A stretch of DNA of 64,000 nt from Neckera pumila (lineage: Eukaryota; Streptophyta; Bryopsida; Hypnales; Neckeraceae). The notes beneath the pieces are model-generated. The model had not been told where the DNA came from. It ran no database searches and saw only the letters and a list, made by a program, of their open reading frames with translations. Position numbers and translations under genes: made by a program. Below are positions 2,847-62,177 of this stretch, piece after piece. Each line of letters opens with the position of its first letter. The stretch's first letter is position 1. The DNA is taken from the NCBI GenBank assembly GCA_963969595.1, contig OZ018412.1, forward strand, positions 3,660,501 through 3,724,500, given 5' to 3'.

Positions 2847-3981
2847 CACTACAAAAAAATGGGGTGTTTTAACCCCTAAAGCCCATTGTCCCTTTGGAGG
2901 ACAAATGGGATTTTGGGCAGGTACCTACAAGTTGAATTTTTGTCGTGATTTTCCAAAACTTTTTTTGAAGATAGAAAATTGCTAAGCTTTGTGGGAATAT
3001 AAATTTTTTTCAATCGGTGCCCGGGAAAAAAGTTATGCCCAAATAAGCTCAAAATTGAAGACAGGGGGCAGCAAAATTGTTTTTGCAAATTTTTATTTTT
3101 ATTTTTTTAAATTTTTTTCTTATAGATTATATTTTTATATATTTGGAAAGCTTTGATTCATTTTATTTGGAATTTAATTAGAAAGTTATGGACGATCTTG
3201 TATTTCAAGCACTTAGAGAATCTTTTTGAAAAAAATAACTTGTAGGATTCATTTCTAAATGCAATTTTTACAATTTTTCAAGAAAAGAGCTTCCATAGGT
3301 TTAGTTTCATTGCTAGAACAATCTCACCATTGGGATTAGTGCTTTTTAATTCCATATAAAAGATATTAATATTTTAGATTTTCCTTCTATCTCGTACCTA
3401 CTTCTACTTAACAATTTTTTTAATGATAAACATTAAATTTTTTTGAATTTTTTTCCCCTGGACTCTCAATTTAGTTTTCCACTATAAAGATTTAAAGCTC
3501 AAAGCTCTATAGTGCAAAAAATTTAAGTTAAAATGTTTCAAAGTTATAACATCTAGTCTTGCAATGTACTAAAATATACGATTTTTTCACTTTAAACACA
3601 AATATCCTGCAATCTTTGCGGTCAAAAATTCTGAAATTTTTTCCACATATTCTTATATTAGTTAGGTGCAAGATCCTATGATTCGATCTACAAAAAAGTC
3701 ATTTTAATTTTATTACTCTTTGCTATTAAAATGACAGTTTTAGATGATTTTGGGCAGAAAAATGGCCTTGAGCCTTTAGGGGTTAAGTGAAATTTTAAGT
3801 ATAGTCCTAGACATAAGATTTCAAGTAATGACCTTTAAGGAAATTTTTAGCAAAATTTTACTAGAAATACAAGTGTTTCTAATCAAATTTTGCTGAAAAT
3901 TGTCTTAAAGTCATTACTTAAAACCTTATGTCTAGGACTACACTTAAAAACTCACTTAAAACACCCCATTCTCTTGTAGTG
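2847..3981. mobile_element. CACTA-type foldback element, TSD TGA, carrying a nested TTAA element
   Basis: The ends are CACTACAAAAAAATGGGGTG on the left and CACTACAAGAGAATGGGGTG on the right (read inward), flanked by TGA at 2,844-2,846 and 3,982-3,984. The arms continue inward (for example AAGTATAGTCCTAGACATAA near 3,797 against its complement near 3,930). Removing the insertion at 2,869-3,786 leaves a foldback of about 221 bp. It is non-coding. CACTA termini and a 3-bp duplication define the superfamily. Confidence 0.85.
2869..3786 (-). mobile_element. TTAA-flanked TIR element, copy 1 (piggyBac-like MITE)
   Basis: It starts TTAA|CCCCTAAAGCCC and ends CCTTTAGGGG|TTAA. It lies inside the left arm of the CACTA foldback. 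The right arm of that foldback reads GGGTGTTTTAAGTGA, whereas the left arm reads GGGTGTTTTAA-element-TTAAGTGA. The undisrupted arm is therefore the empty site and shows that TTAA was duplicated. The subterminal block GATTTTGGGCAGGTACC is shared with copies 3, 5, 7 and 8. No transposase is visible; the 70-codon minus frame at 2,876-3,088 partly matches frames in copy 7 only because the DNA is related. Confidence 0.85.
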
Positions 3982-4234
3982 TGAAAGCTTTGAAAATATT
4001 AGAACTTTGAAGTGTTTGGAAACGATGACGAAGCTTTGACTTTGAAAACTCTGGAAGTATTAGAATTTTGGAGTGTTTAGAAATGACAGCAAAGTTTTGA
4101 ACTATGAAATCCTAGAAAATCACAAAAAAATTAGAAGTTGTTGCCATTTCTCCAAGTTTTGTTTCTAAACACAAACGTTGACAAAGGGAAGGGGTCCGAC
4201 CAACCGGAGGCGGCCACGTGGTGGGAGCTGATGT

Positions 4235-4365
4235 GCGAGGGTTTTGTACGATGACCAGGGTTCTGTACTGTGGCCCGAGTCTGTACAGTGGCCCAAATTA
4301 CGAATGTGGCTTGAGTTTTGTACTGTGGCCGAGTTCTGAAATGTGGCCTAAGATGTGGTCCGTAC
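4235..4365. repeat. Short degenerate tandem repeat around GTACTGTGGCC
   Basis: Units of about 20-25 bp (GTTCTGTACTGTGGCC and variants such as GTCTGTACAGTGGCCC) repeat five or six times. They make opposing open frames in both strands, which I do not regard as genes. Confidence 0.5.
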
Positions 4366-5439
4366 AGCCGCCTGGCCAAAATTTTGGATTTTTTGGAACT
4401 CAAAAATTGAGACTAAAAAAAAAATTATCCCAAAAAAATCTAAGAAAACGTTTTGCATTCTAGGGAGGTAGAAACATATGCATTAGTGAATTAGAATTAG
4501 CAAATAGAAGTAGGAAATAGTAGGAAGAAGTAGAGTAGGACAAAAAAGGGGAATTGCCATCATTCTAACACTCCTCAAATCTCACATGTAGAAGAAACAT
4601 AGGATAGGAAGTAGCTACTTTCATGAACATTCTCCAAACTCTGCAAACTCCAATAGATTGAACTCAAATTGCAATGGAAAAGATGAAGGGACAATTGGGA
4701 ATTTGAAGAGAAGTTAGGATTCAGACAAGATTAGTCAAGTTGTCAACTATCATTTGGGAGTTTGGAGCATTATTGAATAATATCTAAGCCAACTCTTGAA
4801 ATTCAATAATAGAGTCCAAATAGTGTTGAAGAAAATTAGAGTTAAAAGGAAAAAAAGAAGTTAGAAGGAAAAGAAAAGAAGGTCCAGAAAGAAGTAGTAA
4901 AAACTCCAAAACTTATATCAAAATCTTATCTTTAAGCGGTGAGCAAAAATCCAAGACAACATCCAAATATGGCAGATTGGAAATACCTTAAAGAACTCCT
5001 CTACAATACGGCGGATGATGTCCAGCTTAAGGTAACTCATTAATTTCTTCGTTCCCTTTTGAATTGTTTAAATTAGTGTGGGAGCTAGATTACCCACCCT
5101 TGGTAATAAAGCAAACACGACCATATTCTTAGCTTTTATCCACTTTTGACTTAAAGGGGTATTTGCACGCGGGGTCCAATATGCCTTCCAAGCAATGGAA
5201 CTTGCTAATGTTTCCTAAGTTTTCATGGATGGGCGAAGAAGTGACTAGATATATGCGTGATGACTTCTAATTTGATTGCCGATGATTCGGGCCACGGTAA
5301 TCTACCGATGCACTCTCACTGTACTTCTATCTATCCTAGGTTGAGTTCAGATTGGGTGGTTGATGCCATTTCTAACAACTGAACTAATTGAAGGGACCCC
5401 CTAGGTTCCTTCCATGAGCCTCTAAGATTCTTTTTTTGG

Positions 5440-6305: not shown

Positions 6306-7235
6306 TTAATCCCTAAAGGACCGGCATGCGTTTTTTAGCTGTATAGAAATTTTGGGCAGGTACATGTGACTAGAGATTTTCATATTTTTGGCTGAAATTT
6401 TAATGCAATGTGGGTGCAAGGACTATCTTTCATATGCACTAAATTTCATGACATTTGGAAATGTGAATAAAAAGTTATGGCCTAATATGTTACTTTTTTT
6501 TGTAACTGGGCAATTTGAATAGATTAAAAATATTGCTTTTTTCAAAAACAAAAATTTTTAATTGGTTTTCTAGAGTTATGTATATGTAGAAAGCTTTAAA
6601 TCATCCCATTTTGATCAATGAGTCAAAACTTCTGAGGAGTTTTAGTTTATAGGCAGTCATAGATTTTCTACTCTAAAATAAAGTTTGAAGTCCTTTATCT
6701 TATTTAATTTTCAATATTTTTTGAAAAAAATAAAATCATAGGATGTAGATTGTTTATTATAATATTGTAATAGTTGGAATTAGCATTTTTCAATTCTATA
6801 ATTAAATTCTTGACAATTTAGTATTTTGAATCATTCTCTACTAATATCTATTTATTATTTTTTTCCTTTATGCTATACAATTCCAAATGAAGTGAATTTT
6901 TTCAAGCATGTAGCCAACTTGTTTAGGAAAAGAATCCAAAAAAGCACCATCATTTTAGACATTTTTTCATCGAAAAGTGAGCTTATAAAGTGCAGCTGGC
7001 CTACTCTTTGTAGGGCCAAAAAAGTGATTTCAAGGAATTTGAATGCTTATATCTTGCAATCCACATGGTGGAAAATTCTGAAAATTTTACCATACATTCT
7101 CAAGTTAGCATACTACAGGATCCTAGAGTTACATATGTCAAACTTTTTTTTTTCAAAAATTAGATACTTGTACCTTAAAATGGCATTTTTTCAACATTTT
7201 TGATGAAAACATAGTCATAGAACTTTAGAGGTTAA
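6306..7235 (-). mobile_element. TTAA-flanked TIR element, copy 2
   Basis: Left end TTAA|TCCCTAAAGGACC, right end AACTTTAGAGG|TTAA, 930 bp. The subterminal block ATTTTGGGCAGGTAC at about 6,350 places it in the same family and orientation as copy 1. The frame at 6,826-7,203 (125 codons) has no transposase motif. Confidence 0.75.
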
Positions 7236-10200
7236 TGGCTTACCTCATCACTGCCAATGTTGGAGATAATGTCGTCCACGTGCTCATACGTGTCTCCGTT
7301 CATAGTATTTCTTTGGCCTTTTTTTTCCAAAGCTCACCGCTTAATTTCAAAGAACATATTACACCCTAACTTCTTTCATTCCTTCTCCCCTTTTCTTTTC
7401 CTTCTCCTCCTTTCTTCTACTCTGGTACTATTGCACCTACTTTTGATGGTGGTCTTACAAGATGGTCCCGAATGCCGAGAAATTTTAATGTCCCTCGTAT
7501 CTTCTTACGTCTTTCTTTCTTTGTGTCATTCCTATACTCCTCCTAACGGTCACAACAAATTCTTGAGATTTCCCCCCCAGCCTATCTAATCCTAAGCCTA
7601 GGTTACTATTTATCATCTCCCTCCTTTTGTTCCCTACTTCATCTCTTTCTCCATTAATCCCCCTCCATTATTTGTGTTTGTATTTGGATGGTGAGAGTGG
7701 AGCAAGTGAGCTCTATGTGCAAGTGTGATGTGGAGGCCCTGGTTCTCTTCCCCCTTTTCTTTTCTTTTCTTCAGTTGCACATTGACCTTTGAAACTCTAG
7801 TTCCTTAACTGAGTTATACTGAACTTCTGGTTTTGGGTTCCTAAACTAGCTTTGTAACTAGGTTATTTACTCTAGGTTTTCTAAACTAGCTCCTAAATGG
7901 ACAAAAACTAAAAAAAAAAGGAAAGTGGGACCCCGTGGGGTATTATCCCATATTGATCAAGCGTTTAGCCATGATGTATGTGATCAGTTAGCAAAATAGA
8001 ACAAGCTAGAACCTTGTGCTGGCCCAAACTGGGTGCTGGTTCAAACTAGATACCGGCCCGCCATTGGCTGCTGGCTGCTGGTATCCAAATTTTTTCTTCA
8101 AACACACACCTCGAGTTCCCTCAGGGGAACCCACTTACACAAACTTAAGCTGGATTTTTGGAGAGTTAGGGCTAGGTTCAAAGCTTTGCCTTCTGTGGGT
8201 TAGGCCCAAAAATTTTGGGTAAAGAAATTAACTCACATATCAACCGCTACTTATTTTTTGCTAGAACTCTAATATCTTGAAAGCTAAAATTTAGACTTTT
8301 CCAAGAAGATCTTGGAAACTAAACTTTGGGCCTAAATACTTGGGAAGTTCAAAGTTTCGCCATCAAGTTGGGTTCAACATCAACTCTAGGACTTCGTGGC
8401 ACTCCGGGGGTTCAAAAATCCAATCGCGGTAAAATTTCAACTCTTGGGGGTTTCCTATTTTGAGAAAAGTAACTAGCCTGGGTTCTCTGGAAGGTGAAAG
8501 GGAGTAGAAAAAGACTCCTTATTGACACTATTTTGCCGTTGTGTGCCCCCGGAATGCCTGTCAACGTCGTGGGGATCTCGCGACGTGATTAATTCCCGAG
8601 GAATCTTGCTGGTTTGGGTACCTACCGCTATCGGAATGCCGCAAAATTATTGGAACGCATTATTAGCATAAAATAAGCTATCCTATTTTTTTGGGAGATT
8701 TTACCGCACCCTGGATAATTTACTAGAAATTTCTGTTGGAAATTAAAATGGTTGACCGCCCCAAAATGGTTCTTCTACAAGTTGGAAGATGCCGGGAATT
8801 TTTGTGGGACCTCTCAGGGAGCCTTGTGAAAGATGTGGAGGTGTGTTTCCGTACCTAGCACAATTGGTCAGTGGAGACCTATATTGGCCATCTCCTCAAA
8901 TTGTCGATGGCGCGGGAATCTTTTGCAAATGAGGGAGTCTTAGCGAATTGGTTTCGCTGTTGGACTCTTGGCAAGGGATTCACCCTGGAACACCATCCTT
9001 AGGCTGTAAATTCCTCCACAAGCCCGTCTCGAGTTTAATGGCTCGTACATGCTAACAACCGAGAGTTTCAATAATTCGTTGATCCAATGGGGAATTTAAA
9101 ACCTAACCTAGGACCCAATCTACGACTTGCTGTGAATTCCTAGGACCAATCTAGCCATGCATTGCCACCTTCCAGTGGCATTTAGCCTGGTTGGGGCTAT
9201 GTGACTAAAATCCTCCAAATCCCGCTATCTTATGATTTAAATTCTATTTCTAGGCAAGGTTTGGGGAAGTTTTAGGTATAAAATCAAAACTAGACCAAAT
9301 ACTATAATGGGTATGGTACAACCCTATTTTGGTTTTACACTCTTTTTATGGCTTTTTGTATAATTTTACCTATTCTAAATTGCAAATTTCAAAAAAAAGA
9401 AATCCACGAGTCCCAAGTGACAATTTGAAAGCTCACAATTAGCATTTAAAATACTTAGCCAAATTTCAAGACCAATTTAGTGATTCAAAATTGGGATTTT
9501 TTTCCAAGTTTATCCATAGAAATCTGTAGATTAAGATTAGAGGTTCTCAAAAATATATCACATAGGAAATAGAGTAAAAACAAGTAAGGAATGCAAGGAT
9601 GAAGTTTACGACCTAAATTGGATGAAAAAAATTTAGAAGTAACCAAGAGGAACAAAATCAGTAAGTAGAAGTAACCTAGACCATAAAAGTGAAGTTAGAA
9701 GTTAATTTTTAATTTAGGGTTAGTAACAATCAATGGATGAAGTTTTAAACACCAAAGAGAGGTCAAACTTCATCCATCAATAACTCTTGATAAGATACGT
9801 CAAATTTCAAGTGAGATGACATTTTGGAAAGCTTAAACTAGCCTCTTTTAGGAACAAATCTAAAAGTTCTAAGAATAATAATTGACTAGAATTTATTTAA
9901 AGCATCAAAGACAAGGAAAAGAAGGAGTAGGGCAATTCAACTTGATCAAATGAAGAACTTAACATTAGAAACCTAAATTAGGAACTTCAAATAATCCGCA
10001 AGTGGTTTAAACTTAAGGAAAGACCAAAATCACTAGAGAAAACAACAGATGAAGTTTAGGTTAGAAAATGGATGAAATCAACTAAAAGTAATTCGTCCAA
10101 GTCAAAACTTAGGACTTAAACAAGGCCTAACTACTTAAAATTAGGATTCAAATTTTAAGATTTGTTAAAATAGGAAACAAGTCCAAACAAGTGGATGAAG

Positions 10201-14523: not shown

Positions 14524-15108
14524 TTAACCCCTAAAGTCCCAAGGCCATTTTTCTATCAAAAATCACTCAAAATTGCTACTTTTGTTGCGTTCATCCAAGA
14601 AGTCAGAAAAAGTTTTTTTTTTAGAATCTAACCACAGGATCTTATACTACACTTTTCTTAGATCATGTCGTAAAAATTTTGTGATGTTTGACTATATGGA
14701 TTGAAAGATATCAGCATTCAAAGTGAAAGAAAAAGATTTTTTCAATAAGATGCTTTGATTGCCCGCAAAAGAAGAAACTCTATAACTTTCACATCACTAA
14801 TCCAAATGGAATGAATCAAAGCTTCTTATTTAGACAAAAATACAATTTATTAGAAAAAAATAACTAAAAAATTTATTTCAAATTTTTGTGGGTTTTTTTT
14901 GCTACCCAATCTCCCCCGTTTTGAGGTTATTGTAGCATAATTTTTGCTCTTGGGCACCAATTGAAATAAAAATTTTATTCTCAAAAAGCTAATAAGTTTT
15001 TCTATCTTATGGAAAAGTTTCAGAAAGTTTCACCAAAAATTGAGCTCATAGGAACCTGCCCAAAATCCATTTTGTCCCCCATAGGGACAATGGGACTTTA
15101 GGGGTTAA
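14524..15108 (+). mobile_element. TTAA-flanked TIR element, copy 3
   Basis: Left end TTAA|CCCCTAAAGTCCC, right end GGGACTTTAGGGG|TTAA, 585 bp, the most compact intact copy. Just inside the right end is a subterminal hairpin, CCATTTTGTCCCCC then GGGACAATGG. Bases beyond the TTAA sites (ACCAAA and AAGAGA) are not duplicated, consistent with TTAA being the whole target duplication. Confidence 0.8.
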
Positions 15109-18770: not shown

Positions 18771-19259
18771 GCAGTAGATCAAAGAATGCAGCTAGATTAG
18801 AGTTTGGTTGTGGAAGTTTCATTCAACTTTTCTTGAAGATTCCAAGTTTGAAGACATGAAGACATGAAGATTCGTGTGTTGTGGCTTGTGGCTTGTTATT
18901 CCTAGCCGGCTTTGGAGGCTCGTTGTCATTTTTTTGTTCCTAGCCAGTTTGGGAGGCTCGTTGTTTTTAATTCTGCTTTGTAAACTTTGTTGCGGACTAT
19001 GCGGTAACTCAGGATTAGTCCCATTTTGTGTTTGTAGCAATGAAGTGAGATTGATCACCCACATGGTCGATCTTATATATTATTCCCATTGGTGAAGCTC
19101 GCTTGCTGGTCACCATGGGTTTGAAGTTTAGGAGCCCATCATCCGGACGGCATCTTGTGTTATGTTGTCCCGTTTTACCTGTCCGAGGCCGTGGATTCTT
19201 ATCACACACCTTTATCCTGATCCTTATAGAGCCACTACAGGATAGGCCAACAGGGAGGA

Positions 19260-19450
19260 GATTGAAGATTGAAGATTGAAGACCGAAGACTGAAGACTGA
19301 AGATAGAAGATTGAAGATTGAAGACCGAAGACTGAAGACTGAAGATAGAAGATTGAAGATTGAAGACCGAAGACTGAAGACTGAAGATAGAAGATTGAAG
19401 ATTGAAGACCGAAGACTGAAGACTGAAGATAGAAGATTGAAGATTTGAAG
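19260..19450. repeat. Minisatellite: heptads in a 42-bp higher-order repeat
   Basis: The basic unit is GATTGAA with variants GACCGAA, GACTGAA and GATAGAA. They are ordered as a six-heptad, 42-bp block (two GATTGAA, GACCGAA, two GACTGAA, GATAGAA) repeated four times almost without change. Because 42 is divisible by 3, the minus strand is open across it (LQSSVFN/LQSSIFS periodicity), which is not evidence of a gene. Confidence 0.9.
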
Positions 19451-19538
19451 ATTTGATTGAACTCATAGCAGACTATTCCAAGTCGCAGCCAGAATTCTCA
19501 TGATTTTCCAAACAAAACTCTCTCAACTCGACAGCGTG

Positions 19539-21722: not shown

Positions 21723-23616
21723 CACTATAAGAAACCCGTGTTTTTTTTATTCCTAGATTCTGCGTGCTGATGTCGCGACTGGTGTCTTGAAATGTCTACA
21801 TAGACGTCCAAAAAATCGCGTTGCTCAAGATTCGGGTTTGACATCAGATTTGACATCGGACATCAGTATGCTAGGGGACCGGATGTCCAAAAAAAATGGG
21901 TCAACAGGGTCCTCAAAGACCACCATGTGGCTGCCACCTAAGCGCCACATGTGCACGGGCAGCCACGTAGGAAACTTTTTTATCCATTTTTGACCATGAG
22001 GTGGCATGTGACATGGCATCTAGCAAGGATGACGTGGCATGCCACATCAGCATATTTTTTTGTTGTCTAAGAATTTTCTTACTACCTTTGAAGATGTCAA
22101 CATAGACATTTATACGTTTTTTGAGACATCAACTCAAACTTCCAAACGTTTTCATAGACGTACTTTGAAACATCACCTTAGATGTCCAAATTTTTTGTGA
22201 CATCAATGTAAACATTTACTTTTCATCATGAATACCTCTGGCAATGTTTGCTATGATCTAAAAGAACAAAATGATGTCACATTAAACATTCATGGAATGG
22301 AATGGACTATTCAGCATGATGTTAATATGGACAGTCTCACATATCTCATATGATGTCCATCATGCATGTCATAATGTCCAATATAACATGTCATACGCAA
22401 TATACCATACATTATACATCATACATCATATACCATACATAATACGCCGTACAAAATACATCATAATTGGCAATTATGTCACATGGCTTCAAAAGCCACT
22501 TGATGTGAGTTTATGAAGGGAAAAAGACAAGCTCTTTATACAAGTGGAGTGGTAGAGGAGAAGACAAACTATATGGGACATTGAAAACACTAGATTTAAA
22601 TTTTGGAGGAGTAGCACACAGACGTCCATTAGGATGTTTTTTGCATGTCTCAAAGGCCGCTCTGAAGATGTCTCTATAGATGTTATACCAACTGTGACTA
22701 TATTTCTTAAAACATCTAGAAGTCTACAAAAATATATAAGAAAACATCTCAACATTTTATAAAATGTCTTTAGTGACATCTCTACGTCTACTTAGATATC
22801 TCCAATACAAGTGTAGAAAACGCAAAGATGGGCTCTTTATACAAGTGGAGTGGTAGAGGGTAAGACACACTATATAAGACATTGAAAACACTGGATTTAA
22901 ATTTTGGTAGAGCAGCATACAGACGTCCAATAGGATGCTTTTTGTATGTTTCAAAGGCCGCTTTAATGATGTCTCCATAGATGTTATACCGATTGTGATT
23001 ATGTTTCCTAAAACATCTAGAAGTCTACAAAAATGTCCAAGAAAAAATCTCAACGTTTTATAAAATGTCTCTAGTGACATCTCTACGTCTACTTAGACAT
23101 CTCCGAAATCAATGTAGAAAACGCAAAGAGACAGCCCTACTATACTAACATGGCATGCCACATCAGCATAATTTTATGCCACGTCAACTAATTTATACGT
23201 GGCGTGCCACGTCATATGCCATATCGTCTTATTTTCTTCAAAAACTGCTTGGAGGCTGCCCAATCCCTTTTTTTTAACCTTGGTCAGGCTTTTATCTAAG
23301 AAAAAAGTGATTTTCAAAAAATTACCCTCCTTGAAATTTTTCCCCCAAAGTTGACGTGGCCATCTATGTTTTTGCGGACGCCTTGTTAGACATCAGTGAG
23401 TCCTTAAAAATGTCATCAAAAATCTTGAAGTCCTTGGGAACACCAACTGATTCTGTTCAAATTTTCCGCAATCATCTGGAACATCCTTGGAAATTTACCC
23501 TAAACTGCAATCATCTTCTTTAACGTCTTGATGTCTCAGCGGACATAGTATGTTAGGCCTTGGACATCGCATGTTTTTGGACAGACATAATAAAAAAACA
23601 CGGGTTTCTTATAGTG
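21723..23616. mobile_element. 1.9-kb non-autonomous CACTA element, TSD TAT
   Basis: Terminal inverted repeats of about 28 bp start CACTATAAGAAACCCGTG and are flanked by TAT at 21,720-21,722 and 23,617-23,619. Subterminal regions are crowded with GACGTCC, GACATC and AGACGTC-type motifs in both orientations, as expected for CACTA transposase binding arrays. The ORFs inside are short, and two of them are alike only because of an internal 301-bp duplication. No TNPD-like transposase. It is nested in the 4.5-kb TIR insertion, which is nested in the gypsy element. Confidence 0.9.
22529..23128. repeat. Tandem duplication, period about 301 bp, inside the CACTA element
   Basis: GCTCTTTATACAAGTGGAGT occurs at 22,531 and 22,832. 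The copies then stay alignable to AATGTAGAAAACGCAAAGA, with many substitutions but few indels. Confidence 0.85.
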
Positions 23617-31846: not shown

Positions 31847-33751
31847 GGTTCCAGTTCCAACCGCCTTGAATGTCTGCAACTCGCCCGGAGGCTCTACGTT
31901 TTGTTTAGCGGTTGGGCTATAAGGGGCCTTGCTATGCTCCATTCTGTTGGTTGTTTGGGTGATTGTCGTGTTTGTCTGTCCAGGAATCAGGTTGGGATCT
32001 TGTTTGCTTCTCTCCCACGCTGAATTTGTCTGATTGGTATGTGGGTCAAATCGCACTAAGGTACCATTGGGATTACTTTGCTAGGACAGGACTTGAGTCC
32101 TTTTTTGAACTTTTAAAGCTAAAAATTCCTTTGATGTTGTCATTTTAACCCCTAAAGGACCAAACACCGTTTTTTGGCAACATAGCGATTTTGGACAGCT
32201 CACTACAAATGGAATTTTTATTTTTTTTCTTTGAAAATTTTACACAATATGTGCCCAAGGATTAGCTTTAAGGCCCAACAATTTTCATAGCTTTTGACTA
32301 TACGGTTAAAAAGTTATTGCATGATATGTGATTTTCAGTGGTTGGCGGGCAGCCCGGGCAGCTCAAAAAACTTCTTTAAAAATGACTTTAAAAAAAATAA
32401 AAATCTAAAATTGGTTCTTTAGATTTATCTAGAAGTGTGAAGCTTTGAATCATTCAATTTAGATCTATGAGTCAAAAGTTATGAGGATTTTAAGTTTGTG
32501 GGTAGGTATGGTTTTAAAAGACTCCATACCTACCCACAAACTTAAAATCCTCATAACTTTTGACTCATAGATACAAATTGAATGATTCAAAGCTTCACAC
32601 TTCTAGATAAATCTAAAGAACCAATTTTAGATTTTTATTTTTTTTAAAGTCATTTTTAAAGAAGTTTTTTGAGCTGCCCAGGCTGCCCGCCAACCACTGA
32701 AAATCACATATCATGCAATAACTTTTTAACCATATAGTCAAAAGCTATGAAAATTGTTGAGCCTTAAAGCTGCTCCTCGGGCACATGTTGTGCAAAATTT
32801 TCAAAGAAAAAAAATAAAAACTCCATTCGTAGTGAGCTGCCTAAAATCGCTATGTTGCCAAAAAACGATGTTTGGTCCTTTAGGGGTTAAAGAAAAAGTT
32901 ATAGATGAGTAGTATTGCAATGTGTCCCTTTAAAAGTTTGGAGACAAAATTTCATAGGAAAAATCCTTAGAAAGATATAAATCACCAGTTTTAAGGCTGA
33001 ATTTAGTATCTTTTTACAATATTGCACTTCAGAAAGATATTTTCATCCAAATTTTTTATACTTCTCAAACATACAACTATTTAAAAGAACTTTTAGTGAT
33101 TAAATCTTGAACTAAAACTAGTATATTTTTTTAATGAATGAAATGATTGTTGACAAATTATTAATTTCATCTAATACAAAATTTAGACTTTTAGTCCAAA
33201 AATAGCTTATATAGTAACCTTAAAGTCAATATTATATACATTTTTTGTTCTAATACAATCATCATTTGGATTTTTTTTATATTGAAAAGGATGTATACAA
33301 GTTTTAACCTCTAAATATTATAGAAAATGCAAAAATATTCGAATTGTAGAAAAGCAATCCTTTTTTACTCTATTATATGATTATATATATACATAATTTT
33401 TTTGGATTCAATTACATTATTATTATTCAAAAGTTAGAACCCTTTTCTACAATTGAAAAAACTGACATGTTGACATTGAAACTTCAATTGGAACTATAAT
33501 AAAGAATTTTTATTTTTTGATAAATAAAGCAATATTAGGCTCAGTATGATATGAAATACTAATAAAAAAGGACTAAAATACCTATAATTAATAGATTGAC
33601 ATTAAAAAGTGATAGCTAAAAAGAAGTTACATTGCAGATTTGAGTGGGTTTGACCCCTTTTGTGGTGCATTTGAGTGTGATTTGACCCATGTACTTCTAT
33701 TCTTTGCAATGAAATTCCGTTTCATTTGTGCCCAAAAAAAAAAAAACTTTA
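31847..33751 (+). mobile_element. Poly(A)-tailed retroposon (LINE-like 3' fragment or retrocopy) in the 5' LTR
   Basis: The insert ends in a run of A preceded by GAAATTCCGTTTCATTTGTG (33,713-33,732), a typical plant LINE 3'-end composition. It is flanked by an imperfect 12-13 bp direct repeat: AAAGCTTCAAAT at the left and AAACTTTAGAAAT at the right. The sister LTR gives the empty site CTTCAAATATTATATTGC. Without the nested TTAA copy 4 it is about 1.16 kb. I could not read a reverse transcriptase, so LINE versus processed transcript is open. Confidence 0.6.
32145..32890. mobile_element. TTAA element copy 4: near-perfect 746-bp palindromic foldback
   Basis: Ends are TTAA|CCCCTAAAGGACC and GGTCCTTTAGGGG|TTAA. 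The two arms are each 367 bp (32,145-32,511 and 32,524-32,890) around a 12-nt loop and have no net length difference. I count about 15 mismatches by eye, nearly all transitions. The arm resembles the GATTTTGG-CAG end of copies 1 and 2. A transcript would form a long hairpin. It is non-coding and nested in the retroposon, within the gypsy LTR. Confidence 0.92.
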
Positions 33752-35460: not shown

Positions 35461-35681
35461 ATAGTTTGTCAAAAAATGCTAAATTTATATACGATTTTAC
35501 AAGTTTTATATGTAAATACTTAAGACACCAGCAAAATAGACTTCATTGTTTTTTTAAACACATCTTGTGGTTTGTGATTTGGATCATTTTGTAGCATGTG
35601 GTGGCAATTATAAATTGGAGGTATGTGCTCTGTTTCTGTAAATTGATTGCTATGAACATGAACTTGTTGGTGGGTACTATA

Positions 35682-36554: not shown

Positions 36555-36712
36555 TACATTATAGGCAAGAATTATGAGTTACATGTAGCCAACGAATTCA
36601 TCCAACATGGAGGGAATGAATGTCGTTCATTCATCGATCATTCGTTCGAGTACGGGAACTCAAACGATCACACCCGCAGCAATTGGGAACAAGAGCCCTG
36701 ACGTGGGAACGT

Positions 36713-39183: not shown

Positions 39184-40056
39184 TCAATAAACACAACCAT
39201 GTGATTTTGGGCAGGCTCTTATAGTCTTAATTTTTGTCGTGATTTCTGAAACTTATTCTTACGGTAGAAAAATATATTTGGGAATATAATTTTTGTTTCA
39301 ATTGTGCCTAGGAGCAAAAGTTATGCCGTTCTCTATACTATTTCCACTTCATTAGGTAGAAAAGCAAATCTGAAAGAACTTGAAATAAAAATTTTAAAAA
39401 TTTGTTTCTTATAGATCATATTTTTGTCTACATTGAAAACTTTGATTCATTCCATTTGGATTAGTGATGTGAAAGATATGAAGCATCTTACCTTTTCAGA
39501 CAATCGTAGCATCTTTTTGAGAAAATAATAGATCAATCTGTTTATGAACTCAATTTTCACTATTTAAAAAAAAAACATATCACATAGTTTTGTTTTGTTT
39601 TTAAACTATGTAGTATATTTTATTTATTTTTGAAACTATGTGATAAAAATATATCACATAGTTTTCTACTTAACAATTGTTTTAAGAATGAAGGGTTTTT
39701 TTCTATATTTTAATTTTTTTTCCTAGATTCTCAATTCAATCTCATGATAAAAAAATTTAAATCCAAACTTTGTAATGCAAAACAATTAAGTTAAGAAGGT
39801 TCAAAGTCAAATAATGTAGTCATGCAAGGTTCAAAAGAACTTATTTTCTTCTCTCTAAATACAAAACATCTTGCAATCTATGCAATCAAAGTTTCTGAAA
39901 CTTCTTCCATACATTCTTACACTAGTCTACTACAAGATCCTATATTAGATATGCAAAAGAAATTGATTTTTACAAATTTCTAGTGTAAAACACAATAGAA
40001 ATGATAATTTTGAGTGTTTTTTGACAAAGAAAAGGCCGTGGTTCCTTATGGAGTAA
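39184..40056 (-). mobile_element. TTAA-family element, copy 8 (degenerate)
   Basis: Same internal order as copy 1: GATTTTGGGCAGG near the left end, the AAAGCTTTGATTCATTCC-like block in the middle, AAAAGGCCGTGG at the right. The termini are worn: TCAA|TAAACACAACCATG and CCTTATGGA|GTAA. An older member. Confidence 0.6.
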
Positions 40057-40319: not shown

Positions 40320-41515
40320 TGCACAACGTTTTTTTCCTAGGGTGATTTATCTCTAAAAAACTATACAAATTTTTGAGGGAATATTTGTTGATAGACTGTT
40401 CTCCTATTTTCAATGGGTGAAATCATTCAATTGCTACAAAATCAAGAACGATATTGCTCTATTATGGATGGATTTACTCACACTTTAGGATGAATATGTG
40501 TCTTGTCATTCAAAATTTGTATTTTTCATCCATTTTGATGGATGAAAATAGCTTCATTGGCACCTCTTCAGTGGAGATCACTTTTTGCATTGTCAAAAAA
40601 TAATGGTTCTCTTCGGAACTACTTGTTTAACCCCTCTGTGCTCCAACGTCCAGTTTTTGGACAACAAACGATTGAAATTGACATTTCTTTCTCTTTATTG
40701 CTTGGATTGTCCATCCTAAATTGTGGATATACTTTATGAAGTTGTTGTCCTATCAAATGGTTGGATTGGATGTTACTAGGATACATATTTTTCTAAAATT
40801 ACAAATGTGGAAGTATATCAAGTGGTTGACTAAGCCAAAATTGCTTTGACTCTAGTTCAAAACTGGATTTGCAAAAATGAGGTCATAGATTTAAAGAACC
40901 CAAAAATTTCAAAAAATCACCATATGAAGAAAAACTCCTTTCAAATCCATTCCAACAAATTTTTATTCAAATAATAATAATATTTTGCTTGCAATCAAAT
41001 TTTGAAGGAATTTTGAAACTTTTCTTTCAAAATTTATTAAAAAAAATATTGGTGATAGCATTGGTGAATCTTACCGTACATGACTGGAATCTAAAATTCA
41101 ACATCTACAACTTTTATTTGTATACCACTTCCAAAATATTCTTCCAAATAATACTTTACAATGATTTTCCTCAAATCTTCCATTCTGGAGAATACTCTAT
41201 ACATTAAGGGGTTAGAGTAGGGTTGTTTTTTTGAACAAATTTTCACTAAAAAACAATGCAAATTTTTTTGTAGTGAATATCTAGTGAGATATATATTCTT
41301 CCTTTTTCAATGAATGAAATTGCAAAAAGCTAACAAACCTTGGAATGGTAATATTCTATATTGGATGAATATACATTTATTGGATGAATAAATAAACTTT
41401 TGTTCATATATTGCAAGTTACATCTGTTTCCATGGATGTAAATAGCTTCATCATTCCAGTGAAAATTGCTTTCTGCACTGCCTCAAATAAATGAAAACAA
41501 AACTGCTTGTTCAAA
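40320..41515. repeat. Direct duplication flanking a possible TTAA element
   Basis: About 300 bp at 40,320-40,625 (TTTTCAATGGGTGAAAT, ATGGATGAAAATAGCTTCAT, CACTTTTTGCATTG) is paralleled at about 41,225-41,515 (TTTTTCAATGAATGAAAT, ATGGATGTAAATAGCTTCAT, GCTTTCTGCACTG). The element at 40,627-41,215 lies between them. Confidence 0.5.
40627..41215. mobile_element. Possible TTAA-family element, copy 9
   Basis: Left end TTAA|CCCCTCTGTGCTCCAACG with GTTTTTGGACAACA just inside, resembling copy 4 (GTTTTTTGGCAACA). The right end is ATTAAGGGG|TTAG. The TIR is short and imperfect, so this is tentative. Confidence 0.35.
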
Positions 41516-42404: not shown

Positions 42405-43336
42405 TGAACCCCTAAAGTTCCAAGGCATTTTTTTGTCAAAAATGACTTAAAACTGCTAGTTCTGCTACGTTCATCTAAGAAAAGAGAAAAAATAATTTTT
42501 TTAGAATCTAACCATGGGATCTTGTACTTAACTTATCTTAGATCATATGGTACAACTTTCATAAAGTTTGACTGTATAGATTAGAAGATATTAGCATTCA
42601 AAGTTGAAAAATTTTGATTTTTGAACACTAACTTGCAATTTTAGATGACTTTGACCACCATTTGTAAAAAAAGTTGGAATTTAATTTAAAACTTTGAGTT
42701 TAATTTTTTTTTATGCTGAATAATTGAGTTGACAATCTAGGAAAAAAAATTCCAAAAAATACACTTGATTTTCATTATTTAAAAAATTGTTAAGTAGATG
42801 TAGGTCCATGATTGAAAGAAAAACTAAATCGTCAATAGCTCTAAGACGAGATTAAAACACTATAATCCCAATAGTGAGATTGTTTTAGCAAGCAAACTTA
42901 GCCTTGTTGAACAAATTTTTTTGGAAAATTGTGAATTTTGCATTAAAAAATGATTCCTACAAGTTATTTTTTTCAAGAAGATGCTCTAATTGCCCAAAAA
43001 ATAAGATTGTCCATAACTTTCACATAACAAATCCAAATGGAATGAATCAAAGCTTCCCATATAGATAAAAATACAATCTATGAGAAAATAGTTTTTAAAT
43101 TTTCTTAAAAAAAATTTGTGTGAAAAGATTTCTGATTGCCGCACCGAAAAAAGGACCTTTTGTGCCATAACTTTTGCTCCCTGGCACCGATTGAAATAAA
43201 ATTATATGAACATAAAGCTAATGTGTTTTTCTATCTTCACAAAAATTTCAGAAAATAATGATGAATATTGAAGCTGTAGTAGCCTACCCAAAATCCATTT
43301 TGTCCCCCGAGGGAACAATGGGATTTTAGGGATTAA
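42405..43336 (+). mobile_element. TTAA-family element, copy 5
   Basis: Left end TGAA|CCCCTAAAGTTCC (one base off TTAA), right end ATTTTAGGGA|TTAA, 932 bp. The internal blocks GTTCATCTAAGAAAAGAG, CATTTTGTCCCCCGAGG and CCAAAATCC match copy 3 in the same orientation. Confidence 0.75.
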
Positions 43337-48293: not shown

Positions 48294-51200
48294 TTTCACA
48301 TTCGATCGAAAGTGATCTTTATCGGACGTCACGATTGCCCGCAGGTCGTTGAGAAACTCTCTTCGAATGGTGCAACAGGAGAAACGAAGCTGAGGTTGCT
48401 GAAGGAGATAGCTGCAGAGTATAATCTAGATTGGGATCCTGCTCCCTTTGAGAGGGAAGGCAGGGTGGATCGCGATAATGTTCTTGTAAGTGCCTGATTC
48501 TTTTATACAGTGGAAACAACCCAGAGGTGGGAATACGAGTAAAAACATATGAGCATCTACTAGTTGCCTGTGCTATCTGGTTTTATCGGTCGTCTGATAC
48601 TTGTCAATTGTATGAAATTCACAAGTTCTTTAATAATTGGAATTTTTCGTTGGTATTGCAGCCTGGGCCTACTGTGGTCACTGGAGCTGACACCTCGTCG
48701 TTCTTAGTAGACGATTTCCCCTCTGTCCCGAATCAAAAGCCAACATTGGGGACCCATGTATCTCAGCCTGCGAATATCACAAATCCATCTTCGGGAAGGT
48801 TCGACAACGTAGATCCAACAAATTCGCCACGCCCACGTGATGACAGGACGGATTCACCAGGTTCTTTCCCTAGAACTGGGCCTCCTTCCAGGAAACCTCC
48901 TGGACGAGATCAATCGAGAGCAGAGGACCTCAAATTTGATAATGGACTTCCTGACATGGATTCAGGGAGCCGGGAAGCTCAATCTCGGAGGAATCAAAGG
49001 CGCGAATCAGACAGTTTTATCGCCCCATCCCCGCAGGCACGACATGAAGTTCATGATTCAAGGCGCAACTCTATTGGGGTGCCAAGAGAAAAGAGTCTTC
49101 GGTCTCACACCGGATCCGCTCGCGGTGATGTGGACGAGACCTTATTGCGGGATTACAAGAAACACAATTTGAGAGAAGCTGGATCAGAGGACATTGACGA
49201 AGCAAGTGATAGGAAGGGTAGCCATGGAAGAGAGCATGAAGCAGGGACTGATGGCAGGCCGAGCCAAAAGTTTACAGGTCAGGAAGTTTTCGGAAAGGGA
49301 AGTTCACAATATGAAGACCAGTATGCTGAGGAGGATAAGTTTGGAAGAACTTCAAACAGGGATGGTTCCAGTAAGGGAAGGCTACAGAATGAAGATCTGT
49401 ATCCTGAGGACAAGTTGGGGAGGGTTTCAAACAGGGATGGTTCCAGTAAGGGAAGGCTACAACATGGAGATCCGTATCCTGAGGAGGACAAGTTGAGGCG
49501 GGTTTCAAATAGGGATGGTTCCAGCAAGGGAAGGCTACAGCATGAAGATCCGTATCCTGAGGACAAGTTGGGGAGGGTTTCAAACAGGGATGGTTCCAGT
49601 AAGGGAAGGCTACAACATGGAGATCCGTATCCTGAGGAGGACAAGTTGGGGCGGGTTTCAAATAGGGATGGTTCTAGTAAGGGAAGGCCACAACATGAAG
49701 ATCCGTATTCAGAGGAGGACAAGTTGGGGCGGGTTTCAAACAGGAATGGTTCCAGTAAGGGAAGGTCACAACATGAAGCCCAGTATCCTGAGGAGCACAA
49801 GTTGGGGCGGGTTTCAAATAGGGATGGTTCCAGAAAGGGAAGGTCACAACATGAAGCCCAGCATACTGAGGAGGACGAGTCTGGGAGGGGTTCCAGCAGG
49901 GGAGTTTCTGGAGAAAAAATGCCTTATCTGGAGACATCGGTTGAAGAGGGTTCCCGTGGTCGGATTAGTGCCAGCGTCAAGGAGGATAAGCTATACGCAG
50001 GGAGGAAGCCGAAGCACGTTTACTCCGACGAAGAAACTGACCATGTACCTCACCGGAGCGAAGAGCCACGGCGGAGAGAATCTACCAGCAACACGTCCAA
50101 GCACTTGGACGAGGATCCTGGGTGGGATGATGAGCACTTTAGAAATTCTGTAACGACGAGGGTGCCCAGGAACGCAGAGGATGAATATCGCGCTTCTGGA
50201 AAAGGGCGGGATTCTTCAAATAGGAGAACATCTGTTGAAGATTTGTCGAGAAAGAGCAGCAAACCATCTGTTCCCCAAAAGGAGGTTGCGAAGTATTCTA
50301 ACGAGAGAGACACCCCTGATACACCTCAGTATGACTCTAGTGGGGACGAGTATGACTTCCGACACAGCGGTGCAAAAAAGCCGGAGCCAAGGTATAAGAC
50401 AAACGGCATTCGAAACTTAGACGGGTCTTCAGAGGCTGGAGAAGAGGGTTCTCGCAAGGATACAAGGAGGACCTCCAGATTGTCCATCGTCGATGAGCAA
50501 AGGAGAGACCCTCGAGATGATCAAGGATCTTCCGGAGGGTGGAGGCCCGGGAGGGAGGACCCTGTGAACGACCACTTCAGTCCTAGCTCCAGAACCCCAA
50601 AGGATTCGGAGAAGAGGATGAGTTTGCCAGGAGGAAGTGGTCATTACAAATCGAAGTACCAAGGGAATCGACCCCATGATGATCACGACGACTCTGTTAG
50701 GCGGCGAGCGACACTTGGACCAGAGGAAATCCGTCACGCTAGGGCTCGGGAGACTACGGATTCTCCAAAGAGTAGGTTTGGAGAGAGAGAGAAGCAGGTG
50801 GAGAGTAGGAGACAATCTGCACCTCTGGCAAAGGAAGATGGCATGGAAGAACGTCAATCACAGAGAGATAAAACTGACCGACAACGCGAGCTCGACATTC
50901 CTGCTCACCATGATGATGACAGACCGCCTCGCTTTAGTCCAAACGTCAGCTTGCGAGATGATGATGAGTATGCGCCACGCACTCGTACTTCAAGGGATAG
51001 GTCTGACCGACAACGAAAGGCCGAAATTCCTCCTCGGTTCGACGATGGCCGACCTCCTCCACGTTTTAAAAAAGTTGGCAGTCAACCGAACGTGGATGGT
51101 GACGGTTTGCGAGGATCACCGGCCCTCAAAGGCGACAAGCCCCAGAGGTTTGTCACCCGTGATGAGCCGCGATCTCGGACTAGTTTGCAGACTGCGAAGA

Positions 51201-53502: not shown

Positions 53503-54478
53503 TTAACCCTCAAAGCCCAAGGCCTTTTTGGGATTCAAAAATATCATTACTTTTGAAGTGTTATAGATCTAAATGTCACCAAGTCATAGAGAGCTCAACC
53601 ATAAAATCTTGTAGTGTACATGTTGTAGATGATGTGAATCAAATTTGGAGTCATTTGGCCTCATAGATTGCAAGATTATAATGTTTTAGTGTTAAAAATG
53701 GATGCTGAAATTTTCCTAGCAACACATTTGGAGGTGAAATTCAATTTCTAAACCTACTCAAGTAAAAAAAACTCCAAACTATAGAGAGATTCAAAACCAG
53801 CATACAAACACATTGGTGAAAGAAAATATCAATTAGTTGACTCCTTGAGTCTCCAAAATGGCTTTAAAATGTTAAAAAATAGCAAGAAAAGTTGAAAAAA
53901 TACATCTCAGACTGAACCTCATTCTACTAAAATGATTCTGAGTCATTTATAACTTCTTGGATTTATATGAAATTTTAGCCACACAAACTAGACTAGTATG
54001 CACAACTTTTCCAAAAAATGTTATTGGAAACGGACACACTATGAAGAGGAAAATAACTGCCAAGGTTCATTATAATCCAAATGTCACGGGATTTTGAACT
54101 TTGAATTGCTCCCAAACATTCAAAACAATTTGGATTGACATAGAAACTTTGCCACAATAATCAGACTGCAAGTGGAACATATCCCAACAAGTTTTCATTG
54201 AAATGTAACGTTGGAAGAAGGAGATACACTCCTCCAAAGTTGCAGCCATCAAATGCAATTTGGTAAACTAAAATTGAACCTATGAACTTTGATGGGCTTC
54301 CAAGAAATCAATATGTATTGTATTGATTTGAAAAATTTCCCACTCAAATTAGGAGGGAGAATGCAAACTTCCCAACAAAATTAAGTGAATTTGGACATTG
54401 GATGCAAAAGTGGCATCATTTTGAATTGGATTTGAGACTATAGGACACTTTTGGTCCCCTAGGGTGGTGAGGGGTTAA
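53503..54478 (+). mobile_element. TTAA-family element, copy 6
   Basis: Left end TTAA|CCCTCAAAGCCCAAGGCC, right end GGTGAGGGG|TTAA, 976 bp. The left end matches copies 3 and 5 (CCCAAGGCC(A/T)TTTT). The interior has diverged strongly from the other copies, so it represents a separate subfamily. No coding capacity. Confidence 0.7.
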
Positions 54479-56596: not shown

Positions 56597-56604
56597 TATT
56601 TATA
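56597..56604 (-). promoter_or_regulatory. TATA box of the thaumatin-like gene
   Basis: TATAAATA on the minus strand, about 145 bp before the start codon, implying a 5' UTR of roughly 110 nt. Confidence 0.65.
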
Positions 56605-56659
56605 CTTTAGCTGCACCTGACAAGTGCATCATCTCATGCTCACACCTGGCCCTTGCATC

Positions 56660-59682: not shown

Positions 59683-59684
59683 TA

Positions 59685-60295
59685 AGGTAGGATGCTCTAA
59701 AAGCGACCGGCTTCTTCAAATCAGCCCTACAAAATGGTACTAAGTAGATATGAGTTGGTCGTAAAGACCCGACAACCATTTTGCTAGAGGAGTGGGTGGC
59801 GCCTTACACTCAAAAATACCTTGTTGTTGTTGCCTTGTCATTGTTGTGTCTTTACGCCGGGCGATGACCTCGTGGGTGGTCTTTACTCAAATGAGGGACC
59901 TACCCTCGGCCTACCGGCCTTGGTGAGTCCTTCATTTGAGTAAAGACCTCCCACTCAGTCTTTACCCTACACTTTAAATGGACTACTTTAGTCATTGATT
60001 GAATCCTCCAAAAAAATATTCTTTATTGCAAGAGCCAATCATTGGCCTTGATTTCCTCAAATCACTTTAGAACTTGTAAGTGGACGTATTTTAGAAGACC
60101 TAGGGTCACAAATAGGTACCTACAATAGATATCTTAGGAAGTTCATAACTAATTCAAAAATGCTTCAAAAAATATGAAACCACTTATGTTACGTTCTTCA
60201 TCCATTTTTCTTTCTCTAAAAAATATTTTTATTCATGCAAACCTATGAAAAAGGCAAACCAGCCCTTAAATGGTCGCTTTTAGAGCATCCTACCT
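59685..60295. mobile_element. 611-bp TIR element with TA duplication
   Basis: Perfect 24-bp inverted ends beginning AGGTAGGATGCTCTAAAAGC, flanked by TA at 59,683-59,684 and 60,296-60,297, as in Tc1/mariner-type MITEs. An internal hairpin lies at 59,873-59,956. No coding capacity. Confidence 0.75.
59873..59956. repeat. Strong hairpin inside the TA-flanked TIR element
   Basis: GTGGGTGGTCTTTACTCAAA at the left pairs with TTTGAGTAAAGACCTCCCAC at the right, continuing inward to a loop containing CCGGCC. The stem is about 28-30 bp. Confidence 0.75.
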
Positions 60296-60520
60296 TATAT
60301 TAAGGTTGGAATCATAGTTTGGAAATTTCTATAGAAAAATTAGACAAATTCCTAGCTTCTAGAAGTTGGTTTAGATTTTTCAATTTTTACTTGGAAATTA
60401 GCCTAAAGAGTAAAGAGTGAAAATTTTATTGGTAGGAACTATAGTCTAGGAAGTTCTATAGAAAAATTGGACAATTTTCTAGCTTCTAGAAGTTTTTCAA
60501 ATTTTACTCGAAAGTCAATT

Positions 60521-62177
60521 TTAACCCCTAAAGGACATAGGCCTTTTTTCTACCAAAAAACACTCAAAACTGCCATTTCTATAGCAAAGAGTAAAAAAAT
60601 CTGAAAATTGTTTATTTTGCATATTTGACCATAGGATCTTACAGACTTATACCAAACTAGTATGAAAATGTGTGGAAAAAATTTCAAAATTTTTTACCAT
60701 ACATATTGCAAGATATCTACGTTTAAAGTGAAAAAAACATTCGAGAAAAAATCAATCCTCTGGAGTGCTGCTCTATGGACCCCTTCAAGCTTCAGTACCC
60801 TAAAATTTTGTTTATGGGGTTTGAAAATTTATTTTTTTCCCTATTTCCGCATAGCTGAAACTGTTATGACAGTGGCGTAGGAACCCAAATTTACAAATAA
60901 AAAATCATTTAAAAAAAAATTTATCTTAAAAAAAGATTAAAAATAAATAAATAAATTGCAAAATCTGATTGCTCCGACAAGCAATCATACAGTCTGACTA
61001 CTCACCGGGGGTACTTTTCCAGATTGACAAGCCAAGTTTGAAATAACTTGGCATGTCAACTTGGAACGGCCCTCCGGAAAACTAATTTTTGCTCTAATGC
61101 AAGTTTTTTAGCACATTGCGGAGACTAGATAATTTGACTTTGAACTTTCTGAACTTTAATTTTTTGCACTACAAAGTTTTGAGCTTTAAATCTTTGTGGT
61201 GGATAATTGAATTGAGAGTCTAGGAAAAAAAAACTCAAAAAAATTTAATTTTTATTCTTTAAAAAATTGTTAAGTAGAAATAGGTACGAGATAGAAGGAA
61301 AATCTAAGTTGTTAATATTATTAAGAGAGTAAAAAAAATTGAATTTTTTTTCCACATCTAACCACAGGATCTTACACCTAATTAGTATGACAATGTGTGG
61401 GAAAATTCAGAATTTTTGAACGCACAGATTGCAAGATATCTACGTATAAAGTGAAAAAAACAAGTTTTTGAGCATGTTGTGGGACTACATTTTTTGACTT
61501 TGAACATTTTTAACTTTAAATTTTTGCACTACAAATTCTGGAATTTAAATCTTTATAGTAGATAATTGAATTGAGAGTCTACCAAAAAAATATAAAATAT
61601 AAAAAATATAATTTTCATTATTAAAAAAAATTGTTAAGTAGAAGAAGGTACGAGATAGAAGGAAAATCTAAAATATTAATATTTTTTATATGGAATTAAA
61701 ATGTATTAATCCCATTAGTGAGATTATTCTAGCACAAAAATGAAATCATTTGGAAATTTTTTTTTTTTAAATTGTAAAAATTGCATTTAGAATTGAATCC
61801 TACAAATTTTTTTGTAGAAAGATGCTCTAAGAGCCCAAAAAAAAAGATTGTCTATAACTTTCTCATAACAAATACAAATGGAATGAATCAAAGCTTTCTA
61901 GATAGATAAAAATATAATCTATGGGAAAAAAATTCAATTGAATTTTTTTGAATTTTTGCAAAAAAAAATTTGCTACCCCCTTTCCCGTGTTTTGAGCTTA
62001 TTTGGGCATAACTTTTGTTTCCAAGCACCGATTGAAAAAAATTATATTCCTACAAAGCTTATCAATTGTTTTATCTTCAAAAAAAGTTTTAAAAAATCAG
62101 AACATAAATTCAGCCCGTAGGTACCTGCCCAAAATCACAAATGTCCGCCGAACGGTCAATGGTCCTTTAGGGATTAA
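60521..62177 (+). mobile_element. TTAA-flanked TIR element, copy 7, with internal duplication and a nested MITE
   Basis: Left end TTAA|CCCCTAAAGGAC, right end GTCCTTTAGGGA|TTAA, 1,657 bp. Longer than other copies for two reasons. A block is duplicated in tandem (GCAAGATATCTACGTTTAAA at 60,709 and GCAAGATATCTACGTATAAA near 61,430, with matching downstream GAATTGAGAGTCTA and GGTACGAGATAGAAGGAAAA). One of the two copies also carries a CATTAGAG-type MITE. The subterminal block CCCAAAATCAC...GTCCGCCG is the same as at the ends of copies 1, 3 and 5. Confidence 0.8.
60738..61099. mobile_element. CATTAGAG-type TIR MITE, copy 2, nested in TTAA copy 7
   Basis: Ends CATTCGAGAAAAAATCAATC and CATTAGAGCAAAAATTAG (read inward). 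The interior shares GACAGTGGCGTAGGAACCC, CTCACCGGGGGTACTTTT and CAGATTGACA with the copy at 28,567. The duplicated block of the host element without the MITE reads GTGAAAAAAACAAGTTTTTG, giving an approximate empty site, but no clear target duplication remains. Confidence 0.7.

What the first reader, a model, noticed from the sequence alone, without database searches (positions are those of the whole stretch)
2869..62177. A dispersed TTAA-target, CCCCTAAAG-terminus element family: piggyBac-like MITEs in a plant
At least seven elements (2,869-3,786; 6,306-7,235; 14,524-15,108; 32,145-32,890; 42,405-43,336; 53,503-54,478; 60,521-62,177), plus two weaker ones (39,184-40,056; 40,627-41,215), start TTAA-CCCY and end with the complement. 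They share a subterminal GATTTTGGGCAGG block and a small subterminal hairpin (CCATTGTCCC...GGGACAAAATGG). Together they are over a tenth of the window. Flanks outside TTAA are not duplicated. TTAA targets with CCC termini are the signature of piggyBac, which is not one of the usual plant DNA transposon superfamilies. No transposase is present, so the parent element is unknown.
Basis: partly seen in the sequence, partly recalled or inferred. Interest (0 to 1): 0.88.

Follow-up and report, generated by a model that had tools for sequence, protein, structure and literature searches.

The report
piggyBac jumping genes in a moss
The repeated pieces in this stretch of plant DNA, probably from a moss, are cut-down copies of piggyBac jumping genes, a group best known from animals, and the same genome carries full-length parents with intact enzyme genes that seem to have moved recently.

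Summary
Six of nine listed elements have TTAA with CCC-like tips on both sides; a seventh is one base off; E8 is a truncated relative; E9 is not supported. The terminal motif occurs 7 times, against 0 in 100 shuffles. The missing parent is in the same genome: 116 scored PF13843 (piggyBac transposase) matches, best 4.6e-80. Ten of 20 fetched loci hold delimited TTAA-bounded elements of 5.4-7.3 kb in three families, copies 95-99% identical. One family keeps a 638-aa frame aligning with D268/D346/D447 of Trichoplusia ni piggyBac. Window elements are empty sites for parental insertions, contiguous over one TTAA. One 18-base terminus occurs 1205 times, 1048 preceded by TTAA. Of 26 parental left-end fragments, 23 have the right end 1.05-1.40 kb away. 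The host has LEAFY, so is a streptophyte, probably a moss. piggyBac in plants is already in print; the scale and recency are the surprise.

The parts
2869..3786 (-). E1: piggyBac MITE, palindrome end at left
   Evidence: TTAA CCCCTAAAG ... CTTTAGGGG TTAA; 81% over its full length to a copy in L015
2886..2904 (.). E1 palindrome TTGTCC-(7)-GGACAA, bp 14-32 from the tip
   Evidence: 13 of 200 shuffles as good
3420..3423 (.). TTAA inside E1 that corresponds to the insertion site of the autonomous element in L010 (empty site)
6306..7235 (+). E2: second MITE family; relative of the MITE that L009's element entered (6587-6870), its own site reading CTTA
   Evidence: 79% over full length to L023 1599-2525 and L017 1127-2059
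14524..15108 (+). E3: MITE whose tips match the autonomous L010, 585 bp
   Evidence: 40 full-length or near full-length scored matches in own genome including itself, the other 39 at 90-92%, of 9374 first-look candidates
15072..15090 (.). E3 palindrome TTGTCCC-(5)-GGGACAA, bp 15-33 from the tip
   Evidence: 4 of 200 shuffles as good
32145..32890 (.). E4: palindromic (foldback) MITE, arms 368 bp, 96% complementary
32764..32767 (.). TTAA inside E4 that corresponds to the insertion site of the autonomous element in L022 (empty site)
39184..40056 (-). E8: end-truncated relative of E1/E7
   Evidence: 70% to L010 9543-8673 over bases 20-858; no TTAA at either listed end
42405..43336 (+). E5: MITE, left target site TGAA, right TTAA
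43300..43318 (.). E5 degenerate copy of the palindrome
   Evidence: 31 of 200 shuffles as good
53503..54478 (+). E6: a further TTAA-bounded family with divergent ends
   Evidence: 77% over 33-976 to L022 7561-8499
60521..62177 (+). E7: MITE with internal duplications; relative of the MITE that L010's element entered (single TTAA at 61621)

Best explanation
The window elements are non-autonomous piggyBac transposons (MITEs) in a plant, most likely a moss. Related autonomous elements elsewhere in the genome encode a DDD transposase. It binds the shared ends, cuts the element out, and inserts it at another TTAA, which is duplicated. The MITEs keep the ends and have lost or replaced the interior, so they move only in trans. 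The palindrome near one tip of the autonomous elements, centred 24-25 bp in, is most likely the binding site of the transposase's C-terminal cysteine-rich-domain dimer and makes the two ends unequal, as in T. ni piggyBac. Shown here: shared ends, transposase genes, TTAA flanks, empty sites, copies that keep only the two ends, high identity of full copies. Inferred: trans-mobilisation, seamless excision, the role of the palindrome, and present-day activity.
For: PF13843 matches: 116 scored of 872 candidates, best 4.6e-80. Ten delimited TTAA-bounded elements around such domains. 638-aa ORF in L009 and L010, L010's with PF13843 5.3e-81, matching T. ni piggyBac 6x67 at 1.6e-34 with D268, D346 and D447 aligned to Asp; the three Asp kept in 9 of 9 aligned representative rows. 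Copies 98.8-99.4% identical within three families, except L016 at 95.4-95.9%. Empty sites contiguous over one TTAA, including window E1, E7 and E4. TTAA at both ends of 20 of 20 E3 copies, one of them read 3 bases out. 1048 of 1205 exact termini preceded by TTAA, 40 by VTAA, reversed control 0. 23 of 26 L010 left-end fragments paired with the right end at 1.05-1.40 kb. Palindrome at the same register in families with unrelated letters, near bp 17-33 in T. ni (PMC7351741, passages).
Against: No expression, excision or insertion-polymorphism data. E1/E7 interiors are not found in the 10 delimited autonomous elements, so their exact parent is not identified. Many relatives of the MITE that L010's element entered do not read TTAA at that place: 6 of 17 rows do, 8 read TTTA, 3 other. 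E7's palindrome is gone (196 of 200 shuffles as good), L019's best inverted repeat lies elsewhere (bp 1-19), and E3, E5 and E7 also have an A/T inverted repeat at the opposite end (6, 0 and 6 of 200 shuffles). 157 of 1205 termini lack a perfect TTAA (40 are VTAA, 117 not examined). L011's frame is shortened, L016's, L015's and L022's are broken.
Confidence: 0.95

Rival explanations
1. TA-target (Tc1/mariner or Stowaway-like) elements with a T/A flank preference that imitates TTAA.
For: The letters T-TA-A around an insertion would read the same in a single copy.
Against: VTAA precedes the terminus in 40 cases against 1048 for TTAA. Elements with the same ends carry a piggyBac transposase.
Confidence: 0.01
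2. Kolobok or Sola3 elements, which also use TTAA (recalled, no call).
For: Same target tetranucleotide.
Against: CCCC termini and PF13843 domain; the only two solved sequences matched are piggyBac and piggyBat. Kolobok and Sola3 transposases were not searched for.
Confidence: 0.01
3. The piggyBac elements are contamination or a very recent single invasion from an animal, fungus or alga, not a settled part of the plant genome.
For: No named plant protein among the 120 listed (of 222) hits or the 18; organism names, where given, are animals plus one archaeal metagenome label.
Against: Scored matches lie on 11 contigs of an assembly of 18. The other 39 E3 copies are 8-10% diverged from E3. Eight groups at no more than 59% identity among 20 domains. 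All 11 moss rows sit with 19 environmental rows, apart from 5 named animal rows, 100/100.
Confidence: 0.05
4. The palindrome near one tip is not a protein site but a chance or structural feature (single-strand hairpin).
For: Present only in part of the MITEs; A/T inverted repeats also occur at the opposite ends of E3, E5 and E7. Folded as DNA the six palindrome-end sequences give z-scores from +0.65 to -3.10.
Against: Same register in autonomous families with unrelated letters, 0-5 of 200 shuffles as good against 63-102 at their opposite ends; near a known protein-binding palindrome (PMC7351741).
Confidence: 0.2

Closest known systems
piggyBac of Trichoplusia ni (PDB 6x67/6x68)
   Same: TTAA target, CCC tip (tip recalled), DDD triad, cysteine-rich C-terminus, asymmetric ends with a palindrome about 25 bp from the tip
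   Different: Transposase only distantly similar (1.6e-34). Moss elements are 5.4-7.3 kb against 2472 bp for a typical piggyBac (passage). In the moss autonomous elements the palindrome stands within the first 50 bp of one end only; T. ni has the 19-bp repeat in both ends.
piggyBac MITEs listed for angiosperms (PMC10004981) and PiggyBac listed in all taxonomic groups studied (PMC4438587)
   Same: piggyBac-type elements reported in plants
   Different: Only passages naming the superfamily were seen. Here parents, empty sites, copy number and end-only copies are documented in one genome.
Ceratopteris richardii (fern) PiggyBac annotation, PMC6890710
   Same: Land plant with repeats labelled PiggyBac
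   Different: There 1230 copies, 122 kb, printed as 0.00 of the assembly (passage); here about a tenth of the window and of four sampled 10-kb stretches.

Membership tests
piggyBac superfamily | TTAA target site, duplicated on insertion | tested here: met
piggyBac superfamily | Short terminal inverted repeat starting CCY | tested here: met
   a few ends begin TCC
piggyBac superfamily | Transposase with DDE_Tnp_1_7 domain in elements with the same ends | tested here: met
piggyBac superfamily | DDD catalytic triad (D268, D346, D447 in T. ni) | tested here: met
piggyBac superfamily | C-terminal cysteine-rich domain | tested here: inconclusive
   Cysteine-rich tails read in L010, L024 and L017; no Pfam zinc-finger match in those three
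piggyBac superfamily | Seamless excision restoring TTAA | not testable with these tools
   Empty sites fit, but do not show excision
MITE (non-autonomous miniature derivative) | Short, high copy, shares ends with an autonomous element, no transposase | tested here: met
   no scored PF13843 match in the window
Tc1/mariner or Stowaway | TA target duplication without conserved outer bases | tested here: not met
   40 VTAA against 1048 TTAA
Kolobok / Sola3 | Own transposase with TTAA target | not tested
   Their models were not searched; the three proteins scanned from between these ends matched PF13843 only

The most novel reading that the evidence does not exclude
A land plant, probably a moss, in which piggyBac is a long-established, diverse and still moving superfamily: several autonomous families with near-identical copies, at least one with an intact transposase frame, feeding MITEs that make up about a tenth of the genome, with end architecture (a palindrome at bp 24-25 of one end) conserved with the insect element.
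Probability: 0.6. Interest if true: 0.75.

Novelty: new member of a known kind. Interest (0 to 1): 0.6.

Why it matters
piggyBac is used mainly from animal sources and is usually treated as marginal in plants (my own knowledge). A plant genome with intact frames, near-identical full copies, over a thousand exact termini and natural empty sites makes it directly testable whether traceless TTAA excision works natively in plants. It also gives a natural comparison for which parts of the piggyBac ends are essential.

Tried and rejected
Considered and rejected: one single family (E2, E4 and E6 are separate); E9 as a member (no relative found, ends unmatched); TA target; a longer target duplication (0 of 20 share 4 or more bases outside TTAA, 1 of 20 shares 3); single-strand hairpin as the main meaning of the subterminal repeat (mostly weak fold scores). 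Led nowhere: plasmid DNA search with E3 (no match); Rfam scan (none); literature searches for piggyBac in bryophytes, Physcomitrella, mosses and land plants: among the titles and abstract starts listed, none reports a moss piggyBac, and in the one moss genome paper opened (PMC10619864, passages) the word is 'piggybacking'. Most subscription journals are not held and Repbase was not searched, so this does not show absence from print. One survey paper that I looked for is not held. The Asp at the LEAFY '312' position as a moss mark is recalled; the search for it did not confirm it. A genome-wide DNA search with the L018 element did not complete.
Full report
What is in the window. I checked the ends of the nine listed elements. 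E1, E2, E3, E4, E6 and E7 begin and end with TTAA next to a CCC-like tip (E2: TCCC and CCTC); E5 begins TGAA and ends TTAA. E8 is a truncated relative without TTAA at either listed end. E9 has poorly matched ends, TTAG on the right, and no relative besides itself in the window plus 24 fetched loci. TTAACCCCTAAAG or its complement occurs 7 times against 0 in each of 100 dinucleotide shuffles, GATTTTGGGCAGG 4 against 0. Seven elements make 10.5% of the window and nine make 12.8%. Repeat detection and BLAST show several families: E1 (inverted), E3, E5, E7 and E8 are related; E2, E4 and E6 are separate; E4 is a foldback of two 368-bp arms.

The host. The window lies in a 339.5-Mb assembly of 18 contigs. 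The genome has LEAFY: SAM_LFY 1.5e-27 in the genome search and the LEAFY DNA-binding domain at 1.1e-48, so it is a streptophyte (that LEAFY is confined to streptophytes is recalled). The DNA-binding exon reads KPKMRDYVHC; Asp at that position is, as I recall, the moss type. The window also has exons of thaumatin, Ist1 and S10 type. I therefore call it a plant, probably a moss; the species is not known.

The parents. PF13843 gave 116 scored matches of 872 candidates in this genome; it rang in 0 of the 14 control genomes. I fetched 20 of the 116 loci with flanks, mostly the best-scoring. In 10 of 20, elements with TTAA and CCC-like tips on both sides were delimited: L009, L010, L011 (5.63 kb), L016, L018, L024, L026 (7.2-7.3 kb) and L015, L017, L022 (5.37 kb). 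In the other 10 no pair of ends was settled; L014, L019 and L023 have weaker candidate pairs. Within families full-length identity is 98.8-99.2% (L009-L011), 98.9-99.4% (L018, L024, L026; L016 is at 95.4-95.9% to these) and 98.8-98.9% (L015, L017, L022). L009 and L010 keep one 638-aa reading frame, L024, L026 and L018 frames of 727, 707 and 671 aa, L017 one of 987 aa; L011's is shortened to 567 aa, L016's is interrupted and L015's and L022's are split. The L010 protein matches T. ni piggyBac at 1.6e-34 and piggyBat at 1.7e-23, the only two solved sequences found. The catalytic residues D268, D346 and D447 (named in PMC7351741, passages) align with Asp in L010 (numbering counted by me from the printed alignment). 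Strict motif patterns found all three in 17 of 20 domains and missed one or two in L019, L027 and L028; aligned, 9 of 9 representative rows, these three included, keep all three Asp.

The link between MITEs and parents. E3 and L010 share the first 18 bases of one tip and 44 of the first 45 of the other (sequences); over the longer shared ends identity is 74% and 80%. A genome search with the L010 element found three full-length copies at 99-100%, itself included, and one 91% copy over 1-5054 with a right end nearby. Of the 72 matches listed, 26 are left-end fragments, and 23 of these 26 have the matching right end 1.05-1.40 kb from start to end; these are copies that keep the ends and lack most of the interior. 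Two of the other three lie next to longer L010-like stretches. Only 40 candidates of 5898 were scored, so counts are lower bounds. E3 itself gave 40 scored full-length or near full-length matches including itself, the other 39 at 90-92%, of 9374 candidates. The interiors of E1 and E7 are not in the 10 delimited parents, so their exact parent remains unidentified.

Target site. For 20 of the 39 other E3 copies, the first 20 of the list, I read both borders: TTAA on the right in 20 of 20; on the left in 19 of 20 at the expected base, and in the last (L072) beginning 3 bases before the recorded match start, the match having begun at query base 3. No copy repeats 4 or more bases outside TTAA; identity outside was 25.0% against 27.6% for shuffled pairs. 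Genome-wide, CCCCTAAAGTCCCAAGGC occurs 1205 times (601 + 604; reversed control 0), preceded by TTAA in 1048 and by VTAA in 40. The remaining 117 were not examined and may be mutated or truncated.

Empty sites, sought only in the window and 24 fetched loci. The L010 element sits inside an E1/E7-type MITE; window E1 (TTAA at 3420-3423) and E7 (TTAA at 61621) are unoccupied relatives, contiguous over one TTAA. Of 17 such rows 6 read TTAA at the place, 8 TTTA and 3 something else, so many relatives would not have offered the target. The L022 element sits inside an E4-type MITE; all 3 rows read TTAA, window E4 at 32764-32767. The L009 element sits in an E2-type MITE; 3 of 5 rows read TTAA, window E2 reads CTTA. 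Of 10 elements tested, 3 gave convincing empty sites, L016 gave one weak row and 6 gave none.

Amount and diversity. Twenty transposase domains fall into eight groups at no more than 59% identity to each other, one of which holds three families at 75-78%. In a tree of 45 rows (11 moss rows and 34 of 38 proteins that I picked from the 120 listed), all 11 moss rows lie with 19 environmental rows in a group supported 100/100, apart from 5 named animal rows (rooted at the midpoint for drawing only). Environmental rows of unknown host are interleaved with the moss rows, so moss monophyly is not shown.

The palindrome. For these ends 0-5 of 200 letter shuffles are as good, against 63-102 of 200 for the opposite ends. 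In the MITEs it is clear in E3 (4 of 200), weaker in E1 (13) and E5 (31), and gone in E7 (196); E3, E5 and E7 also have an A/T inverted repeat at the other end (6, 0 and 6 of 200), so one-endedness is clean only in the autonomous elements. L019's best inverted repeat lies at bp 1-19; L019 and E6 have short GGAC/GTCC pairs at about bp 25, seen by eye. In T. ni the cysteine-rich-domain dimer binds a palindromic repeat at bp 17-33 of one end, with the minor groove narrowed at about bp 25 (PMC7351741, abstract and passages; I take its numbering to start at the first transposon base). The near match of register suggests the same role; this is inference. Pfam finds no zinc-finger family in the three proteins tested, although their tails are visibly cysteine-rich.

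What is known. Passages say that piggyBac is a plant superfamily (PMC10794571; PMC10140906; PMC10813416), is among angiosperm MITE superfamilies (PMC10004981), occurs in all groups studied (PMC4438587), and is annotated at trace level in a fern (PMC6890710) and a grass (PMC8319324). So presence in plants is not new. What I did not find in the held library, judged from listings and the passages named, is a plant with documented intact parents and this abundance.

Verdict. The finding is real, its interpretation is right in the main, and the missing parent has been found. The piggyBac features tested are met except that the zinc-finger model is inconclusive; excision could not be tested. Activity today is likely but unproven.

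Noticed in passing
L015 1990-7360, L017 2056-7426, L022 about 7529-7532: Elements sit directly against an older MITE and share its border TTAA, as if the TTAA left by one insertion is reused as target by the next (the L022 case is extrapolated from partial matches).
   Followed up: partly
L010 2324-7954 versus L018 1589-8888: The transposase gene runs in opposite directions relative to the palindrome end in the two families, so gene and ends have been flipped or recombined.
   Followed up: partly
window 35675-36561: Another large foldback (arm pieces of 72-166 bp, 82-91% complementary) whose ends are not TTAA; a different element type.
   Followed up: no
window 49295-49892: 78-bp tandem repeat inside a 958-aa open frame just downstream of an Ist1-domain exon; repeat number may vary the protein.
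   Followed up: no
window 19259-19453 and 22531-23129: A 42-bp tandem array (98% matches) and a 301-bp tandem duplication.
   Followed up: no
window 25942-26553: Reverse transcriptase fragment (RVT_1, 1.3e-24), a retrotransposon remnant.
   Followed up: no
P0128: A piggyBac-domain protein filed under a nanoarchaeal metagenome assembly; perhaps a eukaryotic contig binned wrongly.
   Followed up: no
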